From: Branchiostoma floridae
Lineage: Eukaryota; Chordata; Leptocardii; Amphioxiformes; Branchiostomatidae
Length of the DNA: 64,000 nucleotides
Assembly (NCBI RefSeq): GCF_000003815.2
Contig: NC_049986.1
Location: 7,651,665 to 7,715,664, forward strand
Direction: 5' to 3'
Position numbers and translations under genes: made by a program. Below are positions 29,004 to 55,900 of the stretch, one piece after another (positions within the stretch are counted from its first letter, which is position 1; each line of letters opens with the position of its first letter). Under the pieces are notes generated by a model. It did not search any database. It saw nothing but the letters and a program-made list of their open reading frames with translations, and was not told where the DNA came from.

Positions 29004-29550
29004 GCAGTGCGTGCTCCTACCGAGTTCCGAAAGACGAAAGTGCACTGGTTCGAATCCCGGGAGCCAGTAGACTTTTAAATTTCTCCTCTTGTGTTTCCTC
29101 CTCCACTCCTACCGAGTTCTAGAAGACGAAAGTGCACTGGTTCGAATCCCTGGAGCCTGGAGACTGTTAAATCTCTCCTCTTGTGTTTTTTCGTTCACTC
29201 CTACCAAGTTCCGAAAGACGAAAGTTCAAGTTCGAATCCCGGGAGCCAGGAGACTTTTAAATTTCTCCTCTTGTGTTTCCTATTTGATTTCACTCCTACC
29301 GAGTTCCAAAAGATGAAAGTGCAGTGGTTCGAATCCCGGGAGCCAGGGGACTGTTAAATCTCTCCTCTTGTGTTTTCTCTTTCACGGCTACCTAGTTCCA
29401 GAAGACGAAACTGGTTCGAATCCCGGAAGACAAGAGACTGTGTATTTTCTCCTCTTGTGTTTTCTCTTTCACGGCTACCTAGTTCCAGAAGACGAAAGTG
29501 CCGGTTCGTTTACCGGAAGACAAGAGACTGTGTATCCTCTCCTCTTATCA
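29004..29550. repeat. Six tandem ~92-bp units with tRNA B-box-like motif
   Basis: Units start near 29014, 29106, 29198, 29293, 29386 and 29473 (spacing 92, 92, 95, 93 and 87). Each has CTACCGAGTTCCGAAAGACG or a variant, then, in four of the six or with damage, GGTTCGAATCCC, then GGAGCCAG..AGACT and TTTCTCCTCTTGTGTTT. GGTTCGAATCC matches the RNA polymerase III B box (T-arm). I cannot fold a complete tRNA from the unit and see no convincing A box. The array ends about 20 bp upstream of the start codon of the unrecognised minus-strand gene. Confidence 0.85.
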
Positions 29551-34317: not shown

Positions 34318-37170
34318 TTTAGGTCCCCCACTTTTAACCGTCGTTTCCAAAATTATCACATTTCTTTTCATATCATTCCAAATGGCAAACTTTTAGTTGC
34401 AAGAATCTCTGAGATTCTTTGGAGGAACTTGTCTCAAGTTATGCCATCTTCGTCCATTTTCACAATCCATTTAGTTAGTTCAGTTCCATTTAGTCATCGG
34501 TTTAAAACAATAGCCCGAGCCAGGCAAGTACGAACAAATATAAATTCGACACCATATTAGCAACATTCTTTCTCAACGTTAAAATAACACACTCCGATAA
34601 CAATAAAACTGTAATCCAAAGCAACATACATTCACATTATATGTATCAGTGTACAGTAAACTCTCGTCTTAAGCTTTAAATTTTAATGAGCCCCTGGCTA
34701 TTAACAGGTGTTTATGAACTGTTTGTTGACTTATACCCTCCATATTGACAAAACATTCTTTCTCGTAGTCATGCAACCGCACAGAACGATAATTAGATCT
34801 AATCGAAGAAAAAAATCCTTGTAGAGAGATAGATAGTGTAGAGGATACGGAATAAAGGTGTTGTTTATACCGAAACGGGAAAAGGTACTTACCGGTATGA
34901 TTTCCTGGTCGAAAACTATACTATGAACAGTCACACCCAATTTACAGACGGATCCCTGAATAATTGGTCGTTTGGGCGACGATTTGTTTGTTCATTCCTG
35001 ATCATCCGAAGCTTTTCGCCGGGAAACTTAATTACTTGACTTTCTTATCGACACATAGGGTGCGACAAAATAACAGCGCAGCCAAGGCGTGTAAAGTGGG
35101 TCAAACCATTCAGAAAAGTGGGAGCTTTAAAATTTATTTTGACAGAAACGTTGAACCCCTTAGCTAGACTGCGACATAATTAAAATAGAATAATTACCAA
35201 TTTATAGTATTTCATACCACTCAATCTTAATTTAGAAATAGCCAATTTAGGAAGTATGAAAAATACGTGATATTTCCTGACACCCCGCTTTTAGAAAATA
35301 GAACACTCCACCCTTTGAAAACATCTGGTGGTAGCGTGGGGTTGGGTTTTGGCTGGTTTCTACCAAACACAATCCACCAGCAGATACAGTTACCCATCTC
35401 CATATCAGTTTCACCCAATCAGAGTTCGCTTTCACCCCCGGACGGTAACGTTACCCCTCCCCGTTGTGTGTCTACCTGTGCGTTAGCACGTCAAGGTGTG
35501 CCGTACCTGTGGCAAAGGTTTTGTTTTGAGCTGACCCCCTGAAAGATGTGTAAGTAGTAGGAGGCAGTGGGTAGACCCCCGGGGATTATATAAACCTACG
35601 TTGTCGCACTTTTGTGGTAATAAACAAAAGCTATTTATTTAGAACTTGGAGAATAAGCGGTAGGAGGGACTATGTGGTAAGTCGTGTGTAACGTGTCAAT
35701 TGTATATGAGCGGTAGATAGACTGTTGTATATCGTAAGCGATATATACAATAGATATATACATATGACTTTTATTTCTGAAGAAAGCAGCTTTCCTAAAA
35801 AGTATGCGCCAATTTATGGTCGTTGTGTTTTTGTTTATTTTAGATAGATAGTCTTGCTCATCTCTCTTACGAATTTCACCAAATTCACTGCTTTGCAGTA
35901 TTAAAATAAATAAAGTGTTCTTGTACTAGCAAATATCGCAATTATTCTACCTTAGTTATCTTGATTATATGTGAAATAGTGAATTTTCCACGAGAGAGTA
36001 ATGGATAGATAAAGGTGTGAAGTTGTGTTTGCGGGAAAAATCTTGTTTTTCACGTGTGGCATATATTTAAGAGACTTAAGATGAAATATCTACGTGAACG
36101 CAAGTACAACCTACCATAAACACGAACATGTGAAGAAACTGATTGTCTGTAGCACAATTGGGATTGGAGTGATGGCGAGCAAGGTGGTCCGGTAAAACGC
36201 CGACGTACAATTCAATCATAAATCGCCAGATGGCGTGCATACACAAGTCGCAGCCAAATAAATGGCTTGGAGACTGAAACAAAATGTCGTAGCAACTGCC
36301 CAGTTAAATACGTTTGTATATGTAAAGAAACGTTTCACAGTTAGAGTTTTTTCGACATATTTTGAAAAAGCCTCCCCTGAAAATACGTTAACGTTATGTG
36401 TGAAAGAAATGGCAAATGTTACCAGACATAAATTGAAACACATGCAGGCAGACCCGTCCTTGGTACTGAACGCCATCTACATGTTGATACCTGTATTATG
36501 TGCTCACCACTGTCCACACACATGTCCCTGGTCTTCAACGCCTGTCTTATGTGCTCAACAGTATCCACAAACATGGAATTTGGAAACACACATGTCCCCA
36601 GTGCTGAACACCGGCCACACACAAGCAAAAACACCTGTCCTTGGTGCTGAACACTGTACACACAAGGGCTCAAAGGTCCCAGCAGTAGAATTCTAGCATG
36701 CTATCGCGTGCACACACACACACATACGCTGTTGTGCATTTCTTGAGTACAGGAACAAAAGACTTGTTAGCTCATAGTGATACCACAATTGTTGTTACGA
36801 CGTTTATGGTGTCCAAATAAGCATGTTTTTTTTTTACAAATAATTTTTTTACCTTCTCTAAATAAATTTGGAGTCTTCAGATGTCATCCATAAAATTTAC
36901 TTGCTTTGGCCTAAAACCGGTTATGTATTTAAACTTAGAAGTTCTGCATTTACTTTACAATGTAACGTACATTGTAAGAAGTGTTATGTACACTGTAACC
37001 CTATACAAACCTTGATATGATATCAAGATAAAACTAGAAAGGCAACATTTTTGAAAAAAATGCAGGATGTGGACGAAGGGAAAAGAAAGCAAAAATCGCA
37101 GGAAAAGAAGCAACAAGAAAGGCAACATTTTCGCGAAAATGCAGCAAAAAGAATTAAAAAACATTGTCTG

Positions 37171-37235: not shown

Positions 37236-38263
37236 AACATGTTACGAGTGCCCGTTTTAACAGGTAACGTTATAATTATACAAATGTATTGCGTTGCTTG
37301 AAAAAACCCGCGAGCTTCCGCTGGCTATTTTTCTCGCTTATAATCGAAGGTATTTCACTAAAACTTGGACAGAATACTAAAATATTTTTTGTGGGGCATT
37401 TTTATGTTGTTATTTAGCCGATTAGATGCTCTGAACTTGCTGCATTTTCAACGTTTTTTGGCCCCGTAACCGGTTCTACCCAACGTCCAATACCCCTACT
37501 TTTTGTGATACTGCGCTGCCGAGTGCCATTTTGTGACCTGTGCGTTGATAGGTTTACCCCTGACGTATCCACCAGACAGTCAGAATGTTAGCCAATCAAA
37601 AAGCTGGAAACGTGGACTGCATGCTACAGGTTCCATTTTTTCTGAGTTTTGATTGGTCGGGTGGAATATCTGTAGAGAATACTAAATGTGTGGCTTCGCC
37701 CACATAATAAACAATGTAAAACGAGAACATAGGTAGAGAACATAGTGGCTTGTGTTGGTTTTATTGTTTTTTTCCCTAATATACACTGTGAAATGCACAC
37801 CGGATTCCAAACTGGCAAGATCTGTAACATGAAATTCAAGCTGCTGAGCCAGTCTAGTTGGTGCAAAATATCCCAAAATATTGTCAATATTGAAGTTGGA
37901 CTTCAGTGTAACAGCTCAACAAAAACAACACATACATTTACAACAATAGCTCATGCTTCTGCTAATTGTTTAAACATCATAAATGTTTAAATGAACATTT
38001 TAATAATACTACATTTTCAGCATACTTGCCAGAAAATCTGCAGTGTTCACAGTTTGAAAAGATGTTTTCTTTCTATATCAATGAAGCAGGCAGGTACTGA
38101 TGGCCATATTGGTGTCCCTATTTGCATTTTAGTGGATAGAAGCTTGTGTTTTAATTGCAGGTTTTTGAGTATGCTCTAGGTATTCTCATACAGGGTGCTA
38201 CCATCATCTGGAAAGATGGAAGGATGTCTACTACCAGGTATTCTCGACTTAGTAGTCATATTC

Positions 38264-38269
38264 TTTATT
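38264..38269 (-). terminator. PTPA: PTPA poly(A) signal
   Basis: AATAAA on the minus strand lies about 215 bp beyond the PTPA stop codon and is the first such hexamer downstream. Confidence 0.6.
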
Positions 38270-38481
38270 AGAGTGTCGTAAGATCTGAAAACACAGCTAC
38301 GATTCACTGGTATGCAAATCTGGACACCAACATGGTGTCAGACAGAGGGATGACATCATATGAAAATGCTCTCTTTCTCTTTGACCATACATGATGACAA
38401 TACACTCATCTAAAAGTGTCATGGGCTGACTCAACTGTAGCATACATAAGAAGACAAAGGTTCTAAATTTACATCTTGGCG

Positions 38482-41400
38482 TCATGCAGGTTGAATGGAC
38501 AGGAGAGAGCCGAATAAGAAATGCTGGATGACCGGGAACTTGTTCAAAACCTGTAAAAACAAATAACCACAACAACAGGAGTGAGTTACACTTTTCAATG
38601 ACATTAAATTCATGTTTAAAAGCAGGCTACATCATGTGATGTTGCTATACAATAGCTCCATCTATCATTTCCTTTTTGAAGTGCACCCACGTCAGCTTTG
38701 TACAACTTGATGAGTCCTGAGTTTATTGTTGTTTGATAGCAGTCTACATCATTACATTAAACATGGTGATGTTGCTGTACAATAGCTCCACCTATCATTT
38801 CCATTCTGAAGTGCACCCACCTCAGCTTTGTACATCTTGATGAGTCCTGAGTTGACCTTGCCCCAGTAAGGCACACCACTGATGCCCCACAGGGTGTGGG
38901 AATGCTCTGCAAACGGTCCCGTCTTCATCTAAACAAGATGGAAATGTTGAACTAGGCCATGTTAATTTGCTTATATGACGTATATCCTGTGGCAATCCCA
39001 AAACCGATGCAAGCACGTCAAAAAGCAAGCATGCAAAAGAAAAAGTTTGGCCAAAAAAAGCTGCCTTCAGTATGAAATCTAAGTAGTCCGAAAGGTTGAA
39101 CAAATGCTAGAACAACCAGTATAGTATGCCAAACAATTCCAAATTCAACTTCAAAATTGACTTTGGCATTGAATTTCGCATTCTACATTATTAAATGTTT
39201 TCATATATTTTATTTCTAATTTCCAGCATATATTTGCTCACTGACAAAAACTGGTGGATCCCAGTTGAAACGTCTGACAGTAAATCATATCCAGTTGCTT
39301 GAGTAACTGCTTTTTGGCACATATATTTGCTCATTTTGCAGCTGCTTTGTACAATTTACAGAATGGTAGAAAACCTTTTATTTGGATGAAATTTGATAGT
39401 TAATGTGCACACAGATTCCAAATAATTGAACAAATATGTAGCCTGGAATCCAGCCGTATTGTGCTTTGGTCGCTCCCCTGATGTACGCTTCCTGCCAATA
39501 CGACTGGCCTTCGTTACCATTCGAACGATCGGCATTTCAATATTCGCACACTTTATGTGCGCGATTTCTGATTGGCTGTTAGCACCACCAAGGTGGAAAT
39601 CGAACACAAACAATCATGTTTACAGTTTGTAATCGAACGGAACACTACTTCTATCTTTCGACTCATTAGTGACGTAAGGGCCGATTGTTCCAATCCTAAC
39701 GAAGGCCAGACGTGTTGGCAGGAAGCAGAGCGACCAGAGCACAACACGGCTGGATTCCAGGCTAACAAATATGGCCATACCAAAGAAAAAGTTCAGGACA
39801 CTTTGAAAATGGAAGAAGTAAAATAATCTTCACACAACTTACAGTGTTGATGAATCTGATACAGTCCAGGAACATGTACTCTGTGTGATGGTGCTGTACT
39901 ATGTCTAGCTGGGGGAAGTGTTTGGGCTCTATTGTAGGGTGATCTGTGGAGAAGACACATTCTAATTATCATTACATCACAACAAACAATTAAACACACA
40001 GATGTACTGTATTATATAGAACGTTTCTCCAAGAAGGACAACTAGTACTTGCGATAACGTATCTTCTTGCAATAATATCACTAGAAATTCTTGCACACAT
40101 CTTTCACCAAAAGGCAACTATGTACATTTGTATTGAAAGAATGACACAAATAATACAAAAAAACTTCAATTTCTATGAAAGATATACACAAATAGCACAG
40201 TGAGGGAGAGGGTGATTGAGTGATTGCATGACTGATTGTGTCATTGAGTGACTGAGTGTGTGCGTGTGTTTCAGTCAGTGCGAGACTGACTGAGTTAGTG
40301 AGAGTATGCGTGTGTGAGCATGAGTGAGTGAGTGAGTGTGAGCATGAAAGAGTGAGTTGTGAGCATGAATGAGTGAGCATGAATGAGTAAGTGACATAGT
40401 CTCCTACTCATGAGCTGTGAGCTGCCCCCGAGGAAGGGTAGGAACTGGGATTCTTCTTGTCGTGAGCATGAGTGAGTGTGAGTATGAGTGAGTGTGAGTA
40501 TGGGTGAGTGTGAGTATGGGTGAGGGAGTAAGTGACTGAGTGCCCTACTTATAAGCTGTGAGCTGCCCCAGAGGAAGGGTAGGAACTGGAAGTCGTCAAG
40601 TCATGAGCATGAGTGAGTGTGAGTATGAGTGAGTGTGAGTATGGGTGAGTGAGTAAGTGATTGAGTGCCCTACTCATGAGCTGTGAGCTGCCCCAGAGGA
40701 AGGGTAGGAACTGGAAGTCGTCAAGTCATGAGCATGAGTGAGAGTGAGTATGAGTGAGTGTGAGTATGGGTGAGTGAGTAAGTGATTGAGTGCCCTACTC
40801 ATGAGCTGTGAGCTGCCCCAGAGGAAGGGTAGGAACTGGAAGTCGTCCAGTCATGAGCATGAGTGAGTGTGAGCATGAGTGAGTGAGTGAGTTGGTAAGT
40901 GAGTTGGTGAGTAATTGACTGAGTGCCCTACTTATGAGTTGTGAGCTGCCCCAGAGGAAGGGCAGGAACTGGAAGTCGTCCAGTCGTGAGCATGAGTGAG
41001 TGTGAGCATGAGTGAGTTGGTGAGTGAGTAAGTAACAGAGTGTCCTACTCATGAGTTGTGAGCTGCCCCAGAGGAAGGGCAGGAACTGGAAGTCGTCCAG
41101 TCGTGAGCATGAGTGAGTGTGAGCATGAGTGAGTTGGTGAGTGAGTAAGTAACAGAGTGTCCTACTCATGAGTTGTGAGCTGCCCCAGAGGAAGGGCAGG
41201 AACTGGAAGTCGTCCAGTCCCCAGACTCCCTGACTCCCCGCCGGCTCCATCCTGTACACTGTCTGCAGCTTTCTCATCACCTCCAGATATCTACACATGC
41301 AGAAACCAGGGGATCAGGAGTTGTATATTGTTGTTGCATTTTATTTCAAACTGTTCCTTCTACAATCACGAATGAAAAGTGATTTTTAACGAGGCCACTA

Positions 41401-44400
41401 AATTCCACACAAACATCTCCATGTTTACAGACAATTTAGAAAACTACTTACTCTTTACATCATTGAACCCACACATTATAGAAAAGGTGGGATCCTTTGT
41501 CTTCCACTGTCTCAAGAAAAGAAGTCGAACCCAACAAGTTACAGTTTAGCTTTTAGACTAGAGTAGACAAATTCTATACTGTTCTACACTATATGTTATT
41601 CATGTTACCTGGAATAAACCTTGTGCAAGAATTTGCAATAAACTATTATAATTGATATAGCACAGTTATGGTAAAGTGCAACCTGGTGATTCTGGGGGAA
41701 GAATCAGTGACTCTGCCAAATGGCATATCTGTCCATTCACTCAAAAAACACTGGGTCCATCATCTATTTATTGATCAATCAATTGACAGTGTCAATCATC
41801 TAATCCAAATCCCTGTCTTTTGTCTTGTCTTTGTTAGACTTCATCTTTCAAGTGGCATGTTTTTTCATCATATACTTCCTTTAACACTCAACTTCTTCAG
41901 TTATTTTATCTCAGAAATAACATATGTCTATAATACTGTAATCATAGAGCTGAACGCACCTGTGAAACACTCTGAAGACGAGGGCTAGCATGTCCTTTTC
42001 TGTGAAGATACGCAGCTTAAAAAGGCAGCACAGAAATGCAGTAAATGCTGCCTCATGTCCTGTATAAGGAACAAATCAAGGTGGGTCTTGTAAACGTTGT
42101 CAGTTTTAAAGACTTCATGGTCTCAAAATACATGTATGTGCAAAAGGATACACTATCATAGCATTTTTAGATCTTATGCATTAAAAGCAACAAAGGGATT
42201 AGCCTTGAACTTAAGATAATATATTGTTCATCACAGGACTATGGTTGATCAATGCAATCAGTGCTTATATATGGGCTTTGACATCTCAAATCATTGACAG
42301 GGATGTTGTAACCAAGTTGTTCATTCAAACCTGTACACATGGTCCATGTTTTTTGTGCTGTTTCCATACCTCTGACTAGAGTCAGGGGTTAAGAATCTAG
42401 ATGATGCCACTCTGTCACACTTGGGCAATCCATTGGCCACTACAGAAAATCTTGTTGCGTATCTGTAACTACAAGTGGTATAAAAATCTTGTGTCTATTC
42501 TTATGTTTTGAGAGGCAAAGAATCAAATTAAGCCATTTCAGGAAGATCAACGAAAATTTCGTGCTGAATAGGCATACAACATTTGCAATTTATGGTGGTC
42601 ATTACCGAAAAGAAAATTTTCCATCATAGGTATGGAAACAGCAAAAAACATTGCATGCTTTTCTGTCTCTGCCACCAGACTAATAGAGTGCTACCCTCAC
42701 CTGTGCCATAGTCTATCCTAGTCTTGTTGCCCACTCCCTCCCGTAGGTAAACTGCTATCTCAGGTGCAGCTGTGTGGTACTTCTCAGGGAGCAGGGGCTC
42801 AACTAAAGACTCAACATTCTGGAACCAGAGATAACACATGTTACAAAACAAGCATGAAATAGTTTTCTGTACAATTCTATGGTGATATCATTGTGTGCTT
42901 ATCATACACGAACTGTGCAGCTGCGATAAAATCAATTACCTGAAAAAATAATATAACTTTGAAAAAAATGAAACCACTACATACAGATAAACTTCTAAAA
43001 TATATAGTACTGTAAATTCATTTAGGAAGGTACAGCCAATTTCCCTTCCACCACCTTTAACTTCCTAACCGAAGTCAGGTACCTATTTTTACACCTAGGT
43101 GTAGCATGACAGGATTAGAACCCAGGACCTGTGGGTTCAAACAGTTATACCCTGCAGTTATGTCACACAATCCCAGAGTTCACTTTCATTCAACACAAGC
43201 AAATTGCTTATGTCAGATTTTCATTCGCAAATTTGTCCACCAATTTCAGGAGTGGTGATTCAATTTGAGGTAAGCTATTTGCTTGTGTCAAAAGGAAGGT
43301 TACAAACTCCAAAATGGATTCTATCTAGAGCTGTGTACCTAAAGAAATTTTAGGTGTACGTGCAGATACAGGGGTTTAGGTACAGGTCCGGACTTATAAC
43401 CCGTAGTCCTGTACCAAAACATGTTTGATCAAATATCTGTAAGTTACAAATGTAGCCAGCTGTCTTTTTTTAGTGAAAAACTGTCATCTTTGTATAAAGA
43501 TTCTGATATTTGAACCTCAAAACAAACTTTAAGTTTTATTGATTTTCAACTGCAAGTTTACCTCTTCCAGCCTCTGGAACCATGTGCGGTAGGCCTTGTT
43601 GCCGAATCTCTGAGGCTGCTCTACAGGAGGGGTCTCGTCCACCCACCTGTCTAAGGTGTCCAGTATGCCTAACAACTTCTCTGTCGGCTAGGATCACAAA
43701 AGCAATTAACTGATTGTAAAATAAAGTTACAAACAAAGAAGAACAAGAGCACAGATCTCATTTCTCCATTAGACATTAACTATCTTCGATTTCTTGCCTT
43801 ATAAATGCTGAGAACACAGATCTTTTAGTCCAATTTCAATCAGTTCTTTAGAATGATCAGAAAAATATGGAGAAAGAATATGATGCTTCTATGTATGTAC
43901 AGGCAAATCTATATTACAAGTGGCCACCTCAACACAAAGACTACCCAGCCAATGTGACCTGTACCTTTTTGGTGGTCCCTTGTGTTATTACCCTTAGATA
44001 ATTTTTCCCAATTGACACAAGCATTAATGATGCTATCTTTAGTGACATCTGTTGAAAAAGACCACATTTTGTTGGTTACAGGACTGGTCCTATAGTAGAG
44101 CCTATAGTATTGCCTATAGTAAGTTTGACTATCGAACATATAGTTGACAGTTACTGAGTTAGACTCACTTCAGAAATATGGCATTCGCATGTTCTGGACT
44201 TCCCCTTCACAGCCTCATTGAGTGTCAGCACAAACCCCATGTAGTCCCTGTGTGCCTGAGATTTCTGCCACTTCCCCATGTGCATCGGGCTCATAATCTC
44301 TCTCTTTGGTACGGAAAACTCGTGTTCCGGAGAACTGCTCTCCGCTCTCTCCTTCTTCTCTCCGCCATCTTCAGGAGGATTGGAGACAGCTGGGAAAAGA

Positions 44401-46199
44401 AGAAGATCAGTGAGGATTGTTGAATTTTGGATCTGAGTTCAATTCCCTTGGGCAAGACAGTCCAGTGCTAAGATACCTTTATCAGCAGCTACACAGGTTG
44501 CCCCACTTCCAAATTATTACTTTCGGCCCAAAACGGGACGTCTAGAATCACTACCGGCTGGTACCAAACAATATGACCGACAACGCGATTCCAAGTGTCC
44601 CGTTTTTGTAATCTCCAAGCAGATCCTACGGTGCCATAAGATAGTATCAAAGCTGGCCAGGGACTATAGCCGGCTAAGGGAGTCAAATGGGCACCTATGG
44701 GGAGTTTGATACTAACGTTATACATAACGCACCGTGGATCTGGTTCGAGATTCCTATGGGGAGTTTGATACTAACGTTATACATAACGCACCGTGGATCT
44801 GGTTCGAGATTACCGTTTTTGGCCAAAACATTACCGAACATGACCAACTACACTTCGGAAGATTCCTGAACTTTCCAAGATGGCGTCCCGTGAGGTTGAA
44901 CAGTGAGAAATGTTTGTTACAGGTCGGGTTGTGGAGTACTTTAGTGCAGTACGGTTTCGAGACGACTCGGCACCTGAGACAACTCGGCCCTAGTCGGCAC
45001 CATACTTACTCGGCACATAACTTTTATATTTTGCACTCGAAGAATGATATTCCTATCATTCCGGCAGCATAAGAAGTGACATAAGAATGTACAAATCAAT
45101 CTCACCCCACAAGGTAACGTTTTGGATACAAATTTTTAGGATACAAGACCCCCAAAACATGTTGCGGGCCGCGCCGGCGACGCCATTTTTTAGTTGTTAT
45201 ATCGGCGTTCTTTCACGATGTCACTCTACTTCTCTTCTATATCACCGTGTTTGCAAGTTAGTACAAATGAATATAGATGTAATAAGCAGTTCAATATATT
45301 TTGTTGGTCATAAATTACAACTGTTTGTAGGTTTCAAAAACGCGTTGAGATGACCGATCTGATATAGACAGAGCCTCGGCCGTTCAAAGTTAACGTACCT
45401 TGAAGTGACGTTCAGAGCCTCAAAATGTCCGTAAAAATGTCCGTAAAATTGTGCTGACTGTATGACTTACAAGTTATTGCAGTGAGAGAAATGTTTTGCA
45501 GTTAAACATCTTGCATTTCTCACAAACCTTCACAATTTTATGGCATATTCTTGGTGCCAAGTTTTCCCACTTGGCTAGGTGCCGAGTCGTCCCAGGTGCC
45601 GAGTTGTCCTGATACCGTGCAGTACTAGTAGGCAAGACTTCAGGGAAGCCAGGGACGTGCAGAAAACTGGAGAAAGAGGTATCTTCATGCGGCAGATACG
45701 CAAAAACCGTTATGGCTAATGGGTGTTTCCTCAGACGCAGAAAAACAACACAATATATTTTCCTTGCGATGTTGCCCCAGCTTGGCTAAATGTTTACGGG
45801 GGGGGGGGGGGGTATTAAAAAAGGAAAGCTAATAGCATGCCATCATATGCAGGCACCACTGCACAAGAGGCTTTTTTTTTCAGTAAAAAGGATTAGAAAT
45901 CGGTGACATCTTGAATCAGAAAATATTATTCAAATAAAGTCGGCATTATAATAAGGCATCTCTTTATGATGTGTATCCTTTATGAATCAAGATAATTTTA
46001 GCACGGACCGGAGCCGGCCGGCCGGTTACCTGTCAGACTGATCGTTCAAACCACCATGTCAGTTCTTCTACCTCTTGAATAAATCAAGTTGTGTTTAGAA
46101 ATCGCAAAATGGCTCGTACATGGTAAAACAGTGTCATAATCAAATGAAAACCACGCAAAACTGACGAAGAATTTTGTACAAACCTGATTTTTCCGCCAT
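38482..46199 (-). CDS. PTPA: Serine/threonine phosphatase 2A activator (PTPA)
   Basis: PTPA is a peptidyl-prolyl isomerase-class chaperone that uses ATP-Mg to activate the PP2A catalytic subunit. Nine exons in transcript order: 46199-46184, 44389-44169, 43687-43562, 42818-42701, 42059-41960, 41290-41166, 39943-39843, 38928-38821, 38550-38482; 327 residues, close to the 323-residue human form. Matches run the whole length: [25 protein letters not shown] (given here only by its first and last words), [76 protein letters not shown], and [13 protein letters not shown]. The first exon carries only MAEKS. Exon 6 and exon 8 have duplicated 3' ends in the following introns. The gene is head-to-head with CRAT. 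Confidence 0.96.
38627..38731 (-). repeat. Partial duplicate of PTPA exon-8 donor end
   Basis: The segment CAATAGCTCCATCTATCATT, GAAGTGCACCCACGTCAGC, TTTGTACAACTTGATGAGTC duplicates 38766-38855, which spans the end of exon 8 and its donor, 130 bp away. The copy keeps a GTGGGTGC donor after GCTGAC. The spacing is not a multiple of three. Confidence 0.85.
39238..39330. repeat. Dispersed repeat fragment, AACTGCTTTTTGGCA type
   Basis: It shares CAGTTGAAACGTCTGACAG-like and ATCCAGTTGCTTGAGTAACTG sequence with 6262-6460. It is in a PTPA intron. Confidence 0.5.
39439..39764. mobile_element. MITE with ~38-bp TIRs (TAGCCTGGAATCCAGCC)
   Basis: The left end TAGCCTGGAATCCAGCCGTA, TTGTGCTTTGGTCGCTCCC is inverted at the right as GAGCGACCAGAGCACAACAC, GGCTGGATTCCAGGCTA. 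Inner CTGGCCTTCGTTA and TAACGAAGGCCAG also pair. It lies in the PTPA intron between exons 7 and 8. Confidence 0.85.
40196..40400. repeat. GTGAGTGA-type simple-sequence tract
   Basis: Degenerate GAGTGAGTGA/GTGAGCATGA repeats continue the spacer sequence of the exon-end array without the exon part. They lie in the PTPA intron between exon 6 and exon 7. Confidence 0.8.
40405..41165 (-). repeat. Six tandem copies of PTPA exon-6 3' end plus donor
   Basis: The anchor GTGAGCTGCCCC (+ strand) occurs at 40417, 40558, 40683, 40808, 40941 and 41058, and in the true exon at 41175: spacings 141, 125, 125, 133, 117 and 117. Each copy carries the codons for about [15 protein letters not shown] and a GTAGG donor, followed by ACTCACTCATGCTC-type simple sequence. 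The two copies nearest the exon are in frame with it (117 = 39 codons); the next spacing (133) breaks the frame. The most distal copy is the most diverged. Confidence 0.92.
41166..41290 (-). CDS. PTPA: PTPA exon 6, parent of the intronic exon-end array
   Basis: This exon encodes residues 194-235, including [17 protein letters not shown], the most conserved stretch of PTPA. Its donor is CTCATGA|GTAGGAC. From inside this exon onward (LDDFQF...donor plus about 70 bp of intron) the sequence is tandemly repeated toward lower coordinates. The downstream exon 39943-39843 starts AT|CAC, so the join gives LMNHPTIEP, compared with LIDHPYLEP in human. Confidence 0.92.
42346..42652. mobile_element. MITE with ATGTTTTTTGTGCTGTTTCC ends
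   Basis: The left end ATGTTTTTTGTGCTGTTTCC, ATACCTCTGA is inverted at the right as TCATAGGTATGGAAACAGC, AAAAAACAT. Body about 305 bp, non-coding. It lies 49 bp downstream of PTPA exon 42818-42701 in transcript direction. Confidence 0.7.
43085..43172 (-). mobile_element. tRNA-derived SINE head
   Basis: Minus strand: TGACATAACTGCAGGGT, then GAACCCACAGGTCCTGGG, then GGGTTCTAATCC (B box). The order and spacing match the SINE on the + strand at 53144-53270 (GTGGCACAACGGCAGGGTG, GAACCCAGAGGTCCTGGG, GGGTTCAAATCC). Confidence 0.65.
43327..43440. mobile_element. AGAGCTGTGTAC MITE, partial copy
   Basis: It starts AGAGCTGTGTACCTAA and contains GGTTTAGGTACAGGTCCGGAC, as in the right half of the full element at 52679-53082. 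No second end is found. Confidence 0.5.
44690..44812. repeat. Tandem duplication of ~58 bp
   Basis: CTATGGGGAGTTTGATACTA, ACGTTATACATAACGCACCG, TGGATCTGGTTCGAGATT occurs twice, nearly identically, starting near 44696 and 44754. It lies in the first PTPA intron. Confidence 0.85.
44952..45616. mobile_element. hAT-like non-autonomous element with 8-bp TSD
   Basis: It is flanked on both sides by GTGCAGTA (44944-44951 and 45617-45624). The ends CGGTTTCGAGACGACTCGGC and GCCGAGTTGTCCTGATACC(G) are inverted, with extra GACGACTCGGCACC copies near each end. The 665-bp body has no transposase frame. It lies in the first PTPA intron. Confidence 0.85.
45796..45813 (+). repeat. Poly-G run
   Basis: A run of about 16-17 G in the first PTPA intron. 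Its length is probably unreliable in the assembly. Confidence 0.9.
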
Positions 46200-46998: not shown

Positions 46999-49900
46999 AT
47001 GGCATTCTCTGTCATCACAAGAAGTCATTCCTATGATTATAATGATGCTGAAGACAGCGTGTTTGGTATGAGACAGGACCTCACAGTTCAGAATTTACCC
47101 ACGAGGCGCAAGAGGTTTGTGAGGCGCCATTCCTACAGTCCTTATGAGGTCAAGGTGAATGGATCTTTCTTCTTTTTCTCTAGTTTATAGAGGGTCTGCT
47201 TGGGGGGTCCTGACAACGATTTACGCTGAATTCAGAAGAACCCCCTACGTATTACACTATCAAGAAAGGCAATTACGCTAAATTTGGTTGCCATGCTACG
47301 AATTACGTAAATAAGCTGGTTTTCCCTACGAGTTACGGGAAACAAAAATAGGCTGCCTATGCCTTATGGAAAAGAGCATACAGACCCTCTTTATAGAACT
47401 GGTTGTCCCTGACCTCTGGGTCATTGGACTATACTACTACTTTTTACTACGCCCTAGGGGGGTGTATGGCCTCTTACAATATGTCACAATACTCTGTCAG
47501 ACATTGACCAAACATTCTGGACTAAAAACATGAAAGTTTTGTTAATTGTGAGTCCTATGTTCTGACAGTCCCCTATGGCTGGGTGTGTTAAGAACATAGG
47601 GGTGTAATGTTAATATGCATGAAGTTCATGTACTTCTGGCACTACATGTCATTTGAACAATGGTGGTCCTTGGCAATTGTAGACCTGTGCAACTTGTTCA
47701 CTGTGGGTTAAACAATGATTATTTTGTGACTATGTGGTTTAGTATATATATACACATTGGTTTCCCTCTGTCAGTGCCCTCTGTATAAGCGTCCATACCC
47801 CCTGTAGTGTCCGTACCCCCTGTAGTGTCCGTACCCCCTGTAGCGTCAGTACCCCTGTATTATTTTAATTTTTGCTAGCTTAGCAATCACTGTTTAATGG
47901 AAAGCAGGCTATACCGCCTTCACTTGGGTTTTTCTTTTGAATGATTGTTGGATTTTACACATTGGAAACTTTCCTTTCTGATAGGTGAAGACACTTGCCC
48001 ACCATCACCAATGGAAGGCGCCAGAGTTTTTCCGTGGAGCGAAGCTCCCCCCGGGGAGGATGGTTTCGCACCAGTCCAGCCTGCCCCGCCTGCCTGTCCC
48101 CGACCTGTGTCAGACCCTGGAGAAATATCTCCTGACTGTCAGGCCATTGGTAGATGACACTGCCTTTCAGAAGACAAAGCAGGTCAGATGATTAGTCTCT
48201 TAGTGGAACCATATTAAAAATTGTTAACCCTTGAAATATTTGCTGTGTTTTTTTTGCACGACCTCAACTGGGAAGTAGCGATTTACCAATTTTTATAAAA
48301 CATGATGAATTCCATGTAATCATTTTTTGGTCATAGCAATCTTCAGTAAAACAACAATGAATACATTCCTGTTCTTACCACATTCATATTTTTTGATATC
48401 AATATTTGACTAATAATTGAATTCTGCCTGATTCCAGTTAGTTGAAGAGTTTGGCAAATCAGGAGGCCTTGGTGAGAGTCTACAGACCAAACTGAAGAAG
48501 AGGGCACAGGAAAGACAAAACTGGGTAAGTCGTAAACATAACTTTTTTTTAAAAGCTTGGGGCTTTGAGAACAAGGAAATTGTTTGTCACCTATATAAGC
48601 ATTGGCAGAATTTTGCCTAGGTGAAAACACTTCATCTTTAGGATTATCTTATCTATTTTAAGTGTCATTTGCCTTTGTTTGGAGCAGCCCACTAAGTTAG
48701 GAACAGAATGATCTTAGCTAGATTGTTCTTTCTCTTCCTGGTAAACATTTTGTAGAATAGTGAATGTGTATGTGTATGTGTGTGTGACTTCATTGGCCAA
48801 AAATCCTTTAACTAAAGGCTAAAGCTGGAATATGGTTCTTCCTCAAGAGTTTGTTTACAGAAAATTGTTTCTAGAAATAATCAACAGATTTTTAAACAAT
48901 GTTTCATTTTTTAGCTATTGTATGCAAATGTGCAAATGAGTTTTACTACACATTTCATCTTGGCGTTGTCATCCCCAGCTTGACGATTGGTGGCTTCATA
49001 CGGCATATCTAGACTACCGTGAGCCTGTTGTCATACATGTGAGCCCTGGGATTGTATGTCCGCCACAGAACTTCTCTGGCAAGGAAGAGCAACTTCAGTA
49101 AGGAGGGACCACATATTATCATACTTCTGTCGTTTATAGTCATCATAACATGAGCATTACACCAAAATATGTTGGCAGGATTTAAAAAGATTATTCATTA
49201 TACCAACAGCATTATAATCTATAAATTTTGAATTCCTGATTTTTATGACAAAGTGTTTTGAAATAATGACAGTCATTAAACACTAAGAACAGCTATACCA
49301 ATGTCATTAGGACAGTCATTCAGCACCAGGACAGCTATAGCAGTGCCATTAGGACAGTCATTCAGCACCAGGAACAGCTATACTAGTGTTATTAGGACAG
49401 TCATTCAGCACCAGGGACAGCTATACTAGTGTTATTAAGCCCCCTTTACAAATCAAGAATTTAGCTCGGCCGAGTTGTTGGCGAGCACCAAATGGACATT
49501 TTCGTCCGGAGTATGACTGGCGTTTTGGCGATTATGCGGGCCTCAACCAATTTTTAGCAGCTCGGCCGGCGTTTGCGGGGCACTTGCAGCTGCGCTTAAT
49601 GTAGCGAGGCCTCGGCGGCGAGTGTTGAGCTCGGAGAGCTCGTCAATGGGTTGCCTTTAGCTCGACCGGAGCTTGTCCGAGCAATGGCCAAGACTTGGCC
49701 AATACTCGAACGGCAACCCGACGTTTTTTTACCCTCTTTTTTTCGGTCGGAGTTTGCGCAAACTCTTCGGCCTCGCGCCAGACTCGTTCGGGCTTCCTGC
49801 AATAACCGGACGATATTCCGTCCGACTTTTAACAAGTTTGGCATGCTTTGGGCGAACGTTGTGCTGGTGTCGCTGGGAGCTTGGGAGGGCTCCGGCAGAA

Positions 49901-52900
49901 TTTTAACTGTCACCTAATCAATTTGAACACGTGCCTTTGTTTTAGGCTTTCATTTTTAGTAAACAGTTTGTTTCGACATATAAAATAAATAAAGACTACT
50001 GTACGAACTTTTCTAAGAAAGCTGCGTGCCTTTTACAATATAAGGCAATTGGACACCAAGACAGTACTTCCTATCATTTTTTTTTGCTACAGGTTTGGAT
50101 GTGTGAGATCATATATTCTTCATGTCTGAAGGCTTCCAGTCTGAAACTTGGACGGCCTTTGCCGGCCTTCGCTCGAGGTTTGCCCAAGGTTCGCCCGAGG
50201 TTCACCCGATTTCAGCTCTGTCAAAATTATTGTATTATGGTGAATAAGACTGGTCTGTTCACTTTGTGGCTCTTGTGGTAGTTTTTGGATTGGTGTATCA
50301 CCACATTCCTGTTAATACTATTGTTTTCAGTGTGCCTGTCCACTCCACTCATGTCCTACATATATCCCGCAACTCAGAAATTAAATTTTGCACAAATATT
50401 GCCTTTTTACAAGGTTAGTCAGCTCTGACTTCGTACATGTTTAAGACATAGTACAATCTCATTAACGAATTATAATCAGTTGTGTTGGACGGACATCGGA
50501 CGGGCTCCGTCCATTTGTAAAGGGGGCAGATTTTCAGCGAAAAATACAGCCGATACTCGGGCGATGTTGAAATTTGGCGAGCTCTGACTGATCTACAAAT
50601 TCGGCCGGCGTCCGCATGAATTGTAAAGCCGGCTTTAGGACAATCATTCAGCACCAGGGACAGATATAGCAGTGTTATTAGGACAGTCATTCAGCACCAG
50701 GACAGCTATAGCAGTGTTATTAGGACAGTCATTCAGCACCAGGGACAGCTATAGCAGTGTTATTAGGACAGTCATTCAGCACTAGGAACAGCTATACCAG
50801 TGTTATTAGGACAGCCATTCAGCACCAGGGACAGCTATAGCAGTGTTATTAGGACAGTCATTCAGCACTAGGGACAGCTATACTAGTGTTATTAGGACAG
50901 CCATTCAGCACTAGGGACAGCTATAGCAGTGTTATTAGGACAGTCATTCAGCACCAGGGACAGCTATACTAGTGTTATTAAGACAATCATTCAGCACTAG
51001 GGACAGCTATAGCAGTGTTATTAGGACAGTCATTCAGCACTAGGGACAGCTATAGCAGTGTTATTAGGACAGTCATTCAGCACCAGGGACAGCTATACTA
51101 GTGTTATTAGGACAGTCATTCAGCACTAGGGACAGCTAAACTATTGTTATTAGGACAGCCATTCAGCACTAGGGACAGCTATAGCAGTGTTATTAGGACA
51201 ATCATTCGACACCAGGGACAGCTATAGCAGTGTTATTAGGACAGTCATTCAGCACTAGGGACAGCTATACTAGTGTTATTAGGACAGCCATTCAGCACTA
51301 GGGAAGCTATAGCAGTGTTATTAGGACAGTCATTCAGCACCAGGGACAGCTATACTAGTGTTATTAAGACAATCATTCAGCACTAGGGACAGCTATAGCA
51401 GTGTTATTAGGACAGTCATTCAGCACTAGGGACAGCTATAGCAGTGTTATTAGGACAGTCATTCAGCACCAGGGACAGCTATACTAGTGTTATTAGGACA
51501 ATCATTCAGCACCAGGGACAGCTATAGCAGTGTTATTAGGACAGTCATTCAGCACTAGGGACAGCTAAACTATTGTTATTAGGACAGCCATTCAGCACTA
51601 GGGACAGCTATAGCAGTGTTATTAGGACAGTCATTCAGCACCAGGGACAGCTATACTAGTGTTATTAGGACAATCATTCGACACCAGGGACAGCTATAGC
51701 AGTGTTATTAGGACAGTCATTCAGCACTAGGGACAGCTATACTAGTGTTATTAGGACAGCCATTCAGCACTAGGGACAGCTATAGCAGTGTTATTAGGAC
51801 AGTCATTCAGCACTAGGGACAGCTTTACCAGTGTTATTAGGACAGTCATTCAGCACCATGGACAGCTATACCAGTGTTATTAGGACAGTCATTCAGCACC
51901 AGGGACAGCTACACAATATATACTAGTGTTATGATGATAGTCATTCAGCACTAGGGACAGCTATGTTAGCTGAGTGTGTACTGGTAATTCTTCCTCACAT
52001 ATTTTCTCCTGCAGATTTGCTGCTAAGCTTGTTGCTGGTGTCTTGGACTACAAAGTACAAGTAGACGAGTAAGTACAAATAGACGAGTAAATAAAAAAAA
52101 TTAAAAACTGCTGATTTTTGCTACATAAATCTTACATAAAGATAGTTGTTTAAGCTGAGTTATGATATTTTCAAGTAAACACTATGTCACATTTGCTATC
52201 AGATTGTGCAAATTGTCTCCAACTACTTTCATTTTTTTTTCAATTAACTAAGGCAGCCGCCTTCATCCTGCTGAAGATTATGCTGCCTATAGTATGAAAG
52301 TCCACTGCTAGGCGTGGACAAGAATGGAGTATTGTAACCAGGGAGGGAGGAAACTATATGTGTAATTTGAAACTATCTAGAGTGGCACTGAGGGCTACCT
52401 GTGCTGGGAGACTGTTCCACTCCTTGACAGTACTACATGTAGTTGTGTAATACTTGTTCACAGCCAATCCGTGCCCATTGACAAGCTGAGAACTCAGCCC
52501 CTGTGTATGGACCAGTACTACAAGTTGTTCTCAGCCTGCCGTCTGCCGGGGGACCAGCGAGACCAGGTGGTGGTGTACGGGCCTGACTGTGACGATAGGC
52601 CCAGGCACATTGTAGTGGTGCACAACAACCAGGTCAGTCATGGCATGGGATTTTTCATGTCATTTTGGCCCTGTAACTAGAGCTGTGTACTGATACAGTA
52701 CCGGTACAATCAATTCGGTAGGTCCAAGATACCAGAACCCTGTTGTACCAGTACTGAACCTGTATCTAATAAGTGCAAGCCAGACGGTATAACAGGTCCA
52801 GGGATGGCCAATTTGATAGATATAAATAAGATTACCATTATAGCAGTCTCAGAGCCCCAGTGAGGGAAAATGAACAATTTTGTAAGGACCAAATTTTTGT

Positions 52901-55900
52901 TGCATCATGTGTCTACCACAATTAAACATATTTTTATTGGTTCAAATATGCTTCTATACCTATTGAAGATCGACCATAATTTGAACTGGTAGTTCAGGTA
53001 CAGGTACAGGTCTGGACCTGTACCTAAACCAATGTACCTGTATCTATACCTGTGCCTAAAATTTGTGTAGGTACACAGCTCTCCCCGGTTGGTAACACCA
53101 AGAGAACTCTTATCATTCTAGTATTCTGAGATGACCACATTTGTTGGGTCGTGTGGCACAACGGCAGGGTGTTTCCCCCGGAACCCAGAGGTCCTGGGTT
53201 CAAATCCGCTGACAAGACACCAATTTTTGTGCCTTTGGGAAAGGCACTTAACACAAATCTCCTCACATTAATGACTAATAGCTTCAGATAGGGTGTTTGA
53301 GGAGAGCCTCACAGTGAGCAATGTAGTAAGCAGACTGTTGATTTATTATATCTAGCAAGATAGGTTTTGAAAAAAGATTCAATACACTGATAAAATTTTA
53401 GGATGGATCTGAATCAAGTTGTTCTTGATGTATTTAGCTGTTTCAAGGTAAGACTTATATAGTAACTCCTTCAGCTTATGTTGTGAGTCTCTGCCTCGCT
53501 CATAATAGTATTTGGGTTACGTTGCAGTTCTTCTCTTTGGATGTTTACGATAACAACTGGAAGCCTCTGAGCCAAGACCTCATCCATGCCCAGCTGCAGA
53601 GGGTAGTATGTCAGTCCAAACACCCTGGTGTGCCAGTGGGGATCCTCACTACAGAGAACAGAGACACGTGGGGCAGAGTCTACAAGGTACTCAAGAAAGG
53701 TGAATGACAACAATAATGGTTCATTACTTTTCTCAAATTTTCTACAGGCTGTTGCAGCCCATGTTGCTGCCAAAGGCTAAATTGCGTGAGGACTTTTATA
53801 TGATAAGTAAAATCATTGATAAAACGGTAGCTGTTTTCTCAAATTATCATTGAAGCTCGTCTGTTTTGATCGTAATCGTATAATAGAATAGTTGCTGATA
53901 TTATATACAAGATTTAAAAGGAAAAATGTTGATCAAGAACATCACAAAATTACTACATCAGGGCTCGAAATACCACCTGCATATGCACTATAGTGCAGGT
54001 GAAATTGGAGCTGTGCAGGTATTTCTGATGTCTACCTGCTCCTAACCTGCACTGGTCCATGTACTGGGTTTTATACATACATGTCATATGATGTAAGTGT
54101 ATGTGGATTGTTATTAGCTGCATTGAATGTTACTACCTATAAAGTATAAGAGAAAAAAATAGCAATTGTTCCCGAACAATTTTAGTATGATCCATACTTC
54201 CTAAATTCAGAGTGGTGCAGGTAAAATTTGTCTGGTGCAGGTAATTTTCAATGTTACCTGCACCAGTGCAAGTATGCAGAAAAAAGTATTTCGAGCCCTG
54301 TACATACATATACTATACAGACCAATTACAACTTTCTCTGCCTAGCAGTCAGCACTTCATAGGAAGAGTATGGTACACGACTTTTAGTATTAGTGGACTA
54401 GCTTTTGCTGTAACGCTAGTGCTTGCATAAGTGTTTGGTCCAAGGGCTATAGCAGGGAAGAGTTTATCCTAGAGCCTAATTTGTTGTACAGTCATTGTGC
54501 GTTTGCAAACTCAGAGTACACATTCTTTGATTAGTCATGCATGTATCATAAAAGATTCTGCTGTGTTCTTACCAAAAGGCTATCTTTTTTTCTAAGCTTC
54601 TTGTCGGCGGTTGGTTCTTTCACAGCCTACTTGACAATCCCACAACCTAAAACTGTATGCAGATCCATGACAAATGTGATCATGCCATTAACAAACTCAT
54701 ATCAGAATGCACCTTCAACAGGGGCAGGGGACTCCATTATCTCAAGCCCGTTTATAACTTTGTCTTGTCATGTGACAGTCATGTAACAAGAGTCAACATC
54801 TACTGGGTTGGTAAAGAGCCAGCATGTGTCTCGAAAGCTCTCCAAATAGCACACTTTTTCGTGTGAAATTGTTTCAATATTTCATAAACAGAATGCAATC
54901 TTCATACCTTGTTCCCAACCTACAGATAAACATAACAAAAGGTCGCTGGAAGCCATCAACAAGAGCATGTTCATGCTGTGCCTGGACCAGGAGACAGACA
55001 GGGGGGCGGACAGGTGGACCAGCATGGGTCATCAGCTGATGCACGGGGGAGGGAGTCAACTCAACAGTGGCAACAGGTGGTTTGACAAGACATTACAGGT
55101 ACATCTACAACTAATGTTACATTCTACATCTAACATCTGCATCTAGATTCTACATCTACATCTACATCAAATCTACATCTACATCTGCATCTACATCTAC
55201 ATCAGATCTACATCTAACATATCTGATTCAACATTTACATTCTACATCCACATCTGCATCTACATCTTTATTCTACATCAGATTCTACATTCTACATCTA
55301 CATCTTCATCTATGCTACGTCTTCATTCAACATCTACATCTACATCTTCATTCTACATCTACATCTATATCTACATCTACATCTACATCTATATCTATAT
55401 CTACATTCTACATCTACATTTACATGTACATGTACATGACAGTCCATCTACATCTACATTCTACATTCTACATGTACATCTATATCGGATCTACATCTAC
55501 ATCAACATTTACATTCTACATCTACATCTAAATCTTAACATCATATCTACATCTACTTTTCTACATCTTACATTCTACATCAGTGACTGTCACAAATTGA
55601 CTGTTACATTATGCTATACTGCTGTACTGGTAAGTTGTACAAATTGTTTCAGAAGTTTTTAACCAAAGTCTCTTCCCTATGGCAGTTCATTGTTGGTACA
55701 GACGGAGCTGTAGGGATTGTCTATGAACATTCACCAGCTGAAGGACCCCCTATCATTGCCTTACTGGATCACATGTTGGACTACTGGTAAGATCATTTGC
55801 TGGCAATACAGTTCTCATTCAATTTCTCAATGGCTGTATCTGAATAGCCAGTACAATATCATATTATAAGTGCTGTAAGTACCGCCTACTGTCCTTGCCA

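What the first reader, a model, noticed from the sequence alone, without database searches (positions are those of the whole stretch)
40405..41290. Tandem array of a coding-exon end plus its splice donor inside PTPA
Seen directly: the 3' part of PTPA exon 6 ([15 protein letters not shown]), its GT donor and about 70 bp of intron are repeated six more times downstream in the same intron, with spacings 117, 117, 133, 125, 125 and 141 bp. The first two extra copies are in frame, with no stop between them and the exon. Choosing donor 2 or 3 would insert 39 or 78 residues made of [21 protein letters not shown] sequence plus another copy of the conserved segment. Donors 4-7 would change frame. Inference: the array is either a decoy-donor system that the spliceosome must ignore, or a length-polymorphic source of PTPA isoforms. 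The repeated segment is the most conserved part of the enzyme, so insertion there should affect activity.
Basis: partly seen in the sequence, partly recalled or inferred. Interest (0 to 1): 0.88.

Follow-up and report, generated by a model that had tools for sequence, protein, structure and literature searches.

The report
Repeated exon end in amphioxus PTPA
In an amphioxus (lancelet) gene, the end of one coding exon together with its splice signal has been copied six times into the neighbouring intron; this is a new example of a known oddity of this animal's genes, called a mirage, and is probably ignored when the gene is read.

Summary
Seven tandem units, each the last 54 nt of a PTPA coding exon, its GT donor and 63 nt or more of intron, run from 41219 to about 40378 on the minus strand, spaced 117, 117, 133, 125, 125 and 141. 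The genome (513 Mb) is very likely Branchiostoma floridae. The structure matches the amphioxus 'mirages' known from Adh3, troponin C, globins and PGBD5; both published globin mirages turn up in this genome. PTPA has a second, two-copy mirage. Tandem duplications overlap 11 of 70 sampled exon loci (9 distinct arrays), about 7 expected from flanking DNA: no clear enrichment at exon ends. The authentic donor is the weakest located in the gene by a recalled table, and two decoys score better. Pooled over ten arrays, exon and copies differ mainly by silent changes (59 of 86 sites), carried by globin and proteasome arrays; PTPA alone shows no excess (5 of 13). This suggests exchange between exon and copies. 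Use of donors 2 or 3 (+39 or +78 residues) is untested. A new member of a known kind.

The parts
41166..41290 (-). PTPA coding exon (6th if one short first exon precedes); its last 54 nt (41219-41166) are the exonic half of array unit 1
   Evidence: acceptor GTGTAG ending at 41291, donor GT at 41165
41103..41219 (-). array unit 1 (authentic exon end + donor 41165, TGA|GTAGGA + 63 nt intron)
40986..41102 (-). array unit 2, identical to unit 1 over 117 bp; donor 41048, in frame (+39 residues)
40853..40985 (-). array unit 3; donor 40931 TAA|GTAGGG, in frame (+78 residues), scores above the authentic donor
40728..40852 (-). array unit 4; donor 40798 (+367 nt, frame shift)
40603..40727 (-). array unit 5; donor 40673 (+492 nt, in frame by length but with an in-frame stop at 40797-40795)
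40462..40602 (-). array unit 6; donor 40548 TAA|GTAGGG (+617 nt)
40378..40461 (-). array unit 7, most decayed ([17 protein letters not shown]); donor 40407 (+758 nt); its far end is not sharp and runs into ACTC-rich short repeats
39843..39943 (-). next PTPA exon (acceptor CCACAG|ATCACC)
38821..38928 (-). PTPA exon ending AAAGCTGAG|GTGGGT, source of the second mirage
38636..38723 (-). second, two-copy mirage: 88 bp, 93.2% identical to 38853-38766 (33 nt exon end + donor + intron), shift 130

Best explanation
It is an amphioxus 'mirage': a minisatellite whose unit spans an exon-intron boundary. It probably began as a tandem duplication in the ACTC-rich start of the intron and grew by unequal exchange or slippage; the identity of units 1 and 2 places the newest duplication at the exon (shown: structure, identities, gradient; inferred: mechanism). 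In the mRNA the first donor (41165) is most likely joined to the exon that begins at 39943, and the six intronic copies leave with the intron. The likely reasons are that donor 1 closes the short 125-nt exon and is transcribed first (inferred, by analogy with mirages tested by RT-PCR). The copies are probably passengers: I see no clear sign of selection for their donors or frame.
For: All seven units keep GT. Exonic distance from the exon rises step by step along the array: 0, 1, 2, 3, 5, 8 of 54 for units 2 to 7. The same genome shows arrays matching the published BflGb6 mirage (158-bp unit, acceptor side, L021) and BflGb9 mirage (shift 157, donor side, L017). A proteasome-family exon has a donor-side array with five donors (L072), and PTPA has a second mirage. 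Literature: PMC3087553 and PMC3902484 (passages). Exon ends are not clearly preferred: exon hits overlapped by tandem duplication are globin 2 of 12, CCT 1 of 30, proteasome 8 of 28 loci (6 distinct arrays), against 8.6%, 6.7% and 14.3% of random segments of the same loci, about 7 expected in all. Only 3 of 6 spacings are multiples of three.
Against: No transcript data were available. By a recalled human-like table the authentic donor scores -2.5, against 2.8 to 6.8 for the six other located PTPA donors; decoys 3 and 6 score 0.16 and are predicted to be less structured (opening 5.1 and 6.5 kcal against 8.0). Nothing in the sequence explains why donor 1 should win. In globin and proteasome loci taken apart, exons were overlapped about twice as often as random segments, so some preference for exon ends is not excluded by this small sample.
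Confidence: 0.82

Rival explanations
1. Regulated or noisy isoforms: donors 2 and especially 3 are used, giving PTPA with +39 or +78 residues inserted next to the conserved [16 protein letters not shown] segment, with dosage set by copy number.
For: Donors 2 and 3 are in frame and open; donor 3 scores above donor 1 and is predicted to be more open. A JGI gene model took PGBD5 repeats as an exon, without transcript support (PMC3902484 passage).
Against: Units 1 and 2 are identical, so the open frame is little more than one event; spacings are not kept in frame. The Adh3 data and globin RT-PCR are said to suggest regular splicing. The insertion would follow a segment 15/16 identical to a solved PTPA (2ixm).
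Confidence: 0.12
2. The downstream donors help rather than compete: U1 bound at intronic copies strengthens definition of an exon whose own donor is very weak, and splicing still occurs at donor 1.
For: The authentic donor is the weakest located in the gene and has six U1-like sites downstream. Intronic U1 binding can enhance the natural 5' splice site, as in PAH exon 11 (PMC5933811, abstract only).
Against: Most copies are as weak as the donor itself; spacings of 117 nt and more are far larger than the +17/+20 of the PAH case; mirages are not clearly enriched at exon ends.
Confidence: 0.06
3. Assembly artefact: copies of two divergent haplotypes, or misjoined reads, placed in tandem in the assembly.
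For: The B. floridae assembly merged two highly divergent haplotypes with HaploMerger2 (PMC7269912 passage); units 1 and 2 are identical; the authors of PMC3087553 found the BflGb6 haplotype-1 mirage aberrantly assembled in the draft and rebuilt it from traces.
Against: Seven units with six different sequences, more than two haplotypes can give; four different spacings; no N in 38001-45500. For PGBD5, re-examined Sanger and new Illumina data confirmed the repeats. Copy number, rather than existence, is the doubtful part.
Confidence: 0.04

Closest known systems
Amphioxus mirage minisatellites (Adh3: Canestro et al. 2002, not held, known here through citing papers; BflGb6 and BflGb9: PMC3087553, passages; PGBD5: PMC3902484, passages)
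   Same: Tandem duplication spanning an exon-intron boundary in a lancelet gene; real exon as the end unit; many copies keep the splice signal; units of 60-160 bp in the globin and PGBD5 cases
   Different: New gene; seven units, donor side; authentic donor very weak; two such arrays in one gene (PGBD5 also has two). Polymorphism and splicing not tested here
Intron gain by tandem duplication (e.g. PMC4974935, seen in a search listing only)
   Same: Tandem duplication that carries splice signals
   Different: Here the duplicates lie within an existing intron; no new intron is shown
Downstream U1-binding enhancers of weak exons (PAH exon 11, PMC5933811, abstract)
   Same: U1-like site downstream of a natural donor
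   Different: The PAH sites are at +17/+20; here whole exon ends are repeated at 117-141 nt, with no functional data

Membership tests
Amphioxus mirage | Tandem repeat unit spans an exon-intron boundary | tested here: met
   54 exonic + 63-87 intronic nt per unit for units 1-6; unit 7 decayed
Amphioxus mirage | The authentic boundary is one end unit of the array | tested here: met
   unit 1 = end of the PTPA exon, joined to the next exon by conserved protein
Amphioxus mirage | Copies carry AG/GT splice signals (many but not all do in the published cases) | tested here: met
   7 of 7 units keep the GT donor
Amphioxus mirage | Host is amphioxus | tested here: met
   Indirect: both published B. 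floridae globin mirages found with matching unit lengths; the contigs seen among C1-C19 are 17-35 Mb and the three others seen under 1 Mb, which fits n = 19 (PMC7269912); total 513 Mb (the species figure is recalled, the paper passage gives 489 Mb of contigs); mir-2060 in the window (its amphioxus origin is recalled). No named record was compared
Amphioxus mirage | Length polymorphism between alleles, somatic instability | not testable with these tools
   one merged haplotype only
Amphioxus mirage | Regular splicing undisturbed | not testable with these tools
   no transcripts held
Duplicated alternative (mutually exclusive) exons | Copies are whole exons with their own acceptor | tested here: not met
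   copies hold only the last 54 of 125 exon nt and not the exon's acceptor

The most novel reading that the evidence does not exclude
In mirages the coding exon end is itself a recombining unit of a minisatellite: units take turns in the coding slot by unequal exchange, so intronic, even out-of-frame, copies carry a record of selection on the protein and can hand sequence back to the exon. Pooled over ten arrays of this genome, 59 of 86 exonic variable sites are silent (35 expected if the exon is constrained and copies neutral, P about 2e-7; 15 and 13 silent in the other two frames). The excess comes from BflGb9, BflGb6, L055 and L064 (each P < 0.03; L056 3 of 3); L072, L078 and both PTPA arrays show none. 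Copies founded from other exon alleles would give a similar pattern. PTPA: 5 of 13 over both arrays; 4 of 5 for units 2-6 of the exon-6 array against 1 of 6 private changes in edge unit 7 (Fisher P 0.08).
Probability: 0.35. Interest if true: 0.6.

Novelty: new member of a known kind. Interest (0 to 1): 0.42.

Why it matters
It adds a clear donor-side mirage in a conserved gene, with decoy donors equal to or better than a very weak authentic donor. That makes it a natural test of how the spliceosome picks among near-identical donors. The small survey suggests that exon-overlapping tandem duplications are frequent in this genome. The silent-change pattern in several of them suggests that a coding exon can evolve in concert with an intronic minisatellite, which could be tested with population long reads.

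Tried and rejected
Paper searches for 'mirage minisatellite' with amphioxus gave 0 papers; broader terms found the globin and PGBD5 papers. Canestro 2002 is not held. Searches on the assembly size and on amphioxus heterozygosity and passages of PMC10927551 gave nothing that I used beyond a reference. A phmmer search of a 40-aa translation of 41165-41284, given without checking that it was in the coding frame, found nothing; joined exons did.

I considered and set aside: frame selection (3 of 6 spacings are multiples of 3); whole-exon duplication (copies lack the 5' part and the acceptor); preferential origin at exon ends (not supported, but not excluded either: 11 loci or 9 distinct arrays against about 7 expected, and the random segments come from flanks that hold parts of the same arrays). 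RNA folding of the array gave z = -5.2 on 20 shuffles; part of this is a stem in which the donor (GAGUAGG) pairs with CUUACUC a little downstream, also in the authentic unit, so it does not separate real from decoy donors.

Dropped rows: L051 (56 bp, 78.6%) was left out of the silent-site pool; L069 gave no exonic variable site; L080 and L081 are the same array as L055. Exon limits were trimmed by eye; untrimmed hits give 61 of 96. Without contig C156 (L055, L056, L064; the L055 and L064 hits lie within 1 kb) the pool is 28 of 51, P = 0.02. An earlier survey pass took wrong hit limits for truncated loci and was replaced. The CCT survey covers 30 of 68 matches; the 14 aldehyde dehydrogenase matches came without loci and were not surveyed. 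Papers on intron gain and U1 enhancers were seen only as listings or one abstract.

Full report
What is there. The window lies at G000:C8:7651665-7715664 of a 513,431,437-base genome in 431 contigs. On the minus strand it holds PTPA, with coding exons at about 44389-44169, 43687-43562, 42818-42701, 42059-41960, 41290-41166, 39943-39843, 38928-38821 and 38550-38482 (read by hand; each has a Pfam match). A first exon with the start codon was not located, so the array exon is the sixth if one precedes. Four joined exons match solved PTPA chains at E about 5e-65. Of 15 family matches in the genome, 13 lie in this gene: eight exons and array units 2-6. Units 2-5 each pass the family cut-off of 27 bits alone; unit 6 scores 26.8 and passes only with its neighbours; the two matches elsewhere score 14.6.

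The array. Seven donors stand at 41165, 41048, 40931, 40798, 40673, 40548 and 40407, spaced 117, 117, 133, 125, 125 and 141. Each unit has 54 exonic nt ending in ATGA or ATAA, then GTAGG and C/A/T-rich intron; spacings differ by multiples of 8 and a 16-bp short repeat lies inside the units. Units 1 and 2 are identical over 117 bp. Exonic differences from the exon rise along the array: 0, 1, 2, 3, 5, 8 of 54. Extensions are 117, 234, 367, 492, 617 and 758 nt.

Class. Amphioxus 'mirages' are minisatellite-like duplications of exon-intron boundaries. PMC3087553 reports them in globins BflGb6 and BflGb9 and cites Adh3 and others (passages); PMC3902484 reports PGBD5 and cites troponin C (passages). 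As positive controls I searched the globin exons of this genome: of 12 loci, L021 has a 158-bp, 4.2-copy acceptor-side array and L017 a donor-side duplication with shift 157, matching the published 150-160 and 157 bp. This makes B. floridae very likely; its published assembly has 19 chromosomes, built from Sanger reads with two divergent haplotypes merged (PMC7269912, passages).

How common, and is it targeted? In 70 exon loci (12 of 12 globin matches, the best 30 of 68 CCT matches, 28 of 28 proteasome matches), tandem duplications overlap the exon hit in 11 loci (9 distinct arrays): globin 2 of 12, CCT 1 of 30, proteasome 8 of 28 (6 distinct arrays). Random segments of the same loci are overlapped at 8.6%, 6.7% and 14.3%, which gives about 7 expected loci. 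There is no clear sign that exon ends attract the duplications, though globin and proteasome exons lie at about twice their own background and the sample is small. The proteasome set includes a donor-side array with five GTGAGTT donors (L072). PTPA itself has a second, two-copy mirage (88 bp, 93.2%, shift 130) whose decoy donor GAC|GTGGGT is weaker than the authentic GAG|GTGGGT.

Donor choice. With a human-like 5' splice site table recalled from general knowledge, the six other located PTPA donors score 2.8 to 6.8, the array donors -2.5, -2.5, 0.16, -2.2, -2.2, 0.16 and -2.5. In 200-nt folds the authentic donor needs 8.0 kcal to open, decoys 3 and 6 need 5.1 and 6.5, the other array donors 9.3 to 11.5. 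Sequence alone does not say why donor 1 should win over decoys 3 and 6; short exon length and order of transcription are my inference, and published statements on other mirages are the main support. Isoforms from donors 2 and 3 are not excluded.

Silent differences. In PTPA units 2-6, 4 of 5 exonic variable sites are silent (P 0.007-0.020 against random change; 0.07-0.10 if only the exon is constrained). With unit 7 it is 5 of 11, and 5 of 13 with the second mirage: no excess. Pooled over ten arrays, 59 of 86 sites are silent, against 22 expected at random and 35 if exons are constrained and copies neutral (P about 2e-7); the other frames give 15 and 13. By array: BflGb9 9 of 12, BflGb6 10 of 15, L055 15 of 17, L064 13 of 15 and L056 3 of 3 carry the excess; L072 2 of 6, L078 2 of 5, PTPA exon 6 5 of 11 and exon 8 0 of 2 do not; L069 has no variable site. 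The two published globin mirages alone give 19 of 27 (P = 0.0009); leaving out contig C156 gives 28 of 51 (P = 0.02). I read this as exchange between exon and copies, or copies founded from different exon alleles; these are inferences. The passages I saw mention concerted evolution within clusters but not this pattern; I have not read the full literature.

Verdict. Real, correctly described apart from donor 5, and a new member of a known kind.

Noticed in passing
38636-38723 and 38766-38853: Second mirage in PTPA: exon end plus donor duplicated once with shift 130, 93.2% identical.
   Followed up: yes
L055, L056, L064 (contig C156), L069, L072, L078: Proteasome-family exons in the same genome with exon-overlapping tandem duplications; on C156 an array with shifts of about 136-142 bp (L055) differs from the exon mostly by silent changes (15 of 17).
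   Followed up: partly
L017 from about position 1922: The assembly shows a run of N just after the duplicated BflGb9 boundary, so the array may be longer than assembled.
   Followed up: no
36580-36671: Rfam mir-2060 precursor (75.1 bits) on the minus strand, within a stretch that repeats itself weakly at 51 bp (36490-36664, 67%).
   Followed up: no
29014-29546: 92-bp tandem array whose unit holds GGTTCGAATCCC, like a tRNA B box (recalled motif), perhaps from a SINE; it lies next to an open frame at 29000-28437.
   Followed up: no
52381-53707: Carnitine acyltransferase exons (Pfam) beside PTPA; human CRAT and PTPA are also neighbours (recalled), so the pair may be an old linkage.
   Followed up: partly
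50635-51911 and 49263-49437: 43-bp minisatellite of about 30 copies with a four-copy outlier 1.2 kb away.
   Followed up: no
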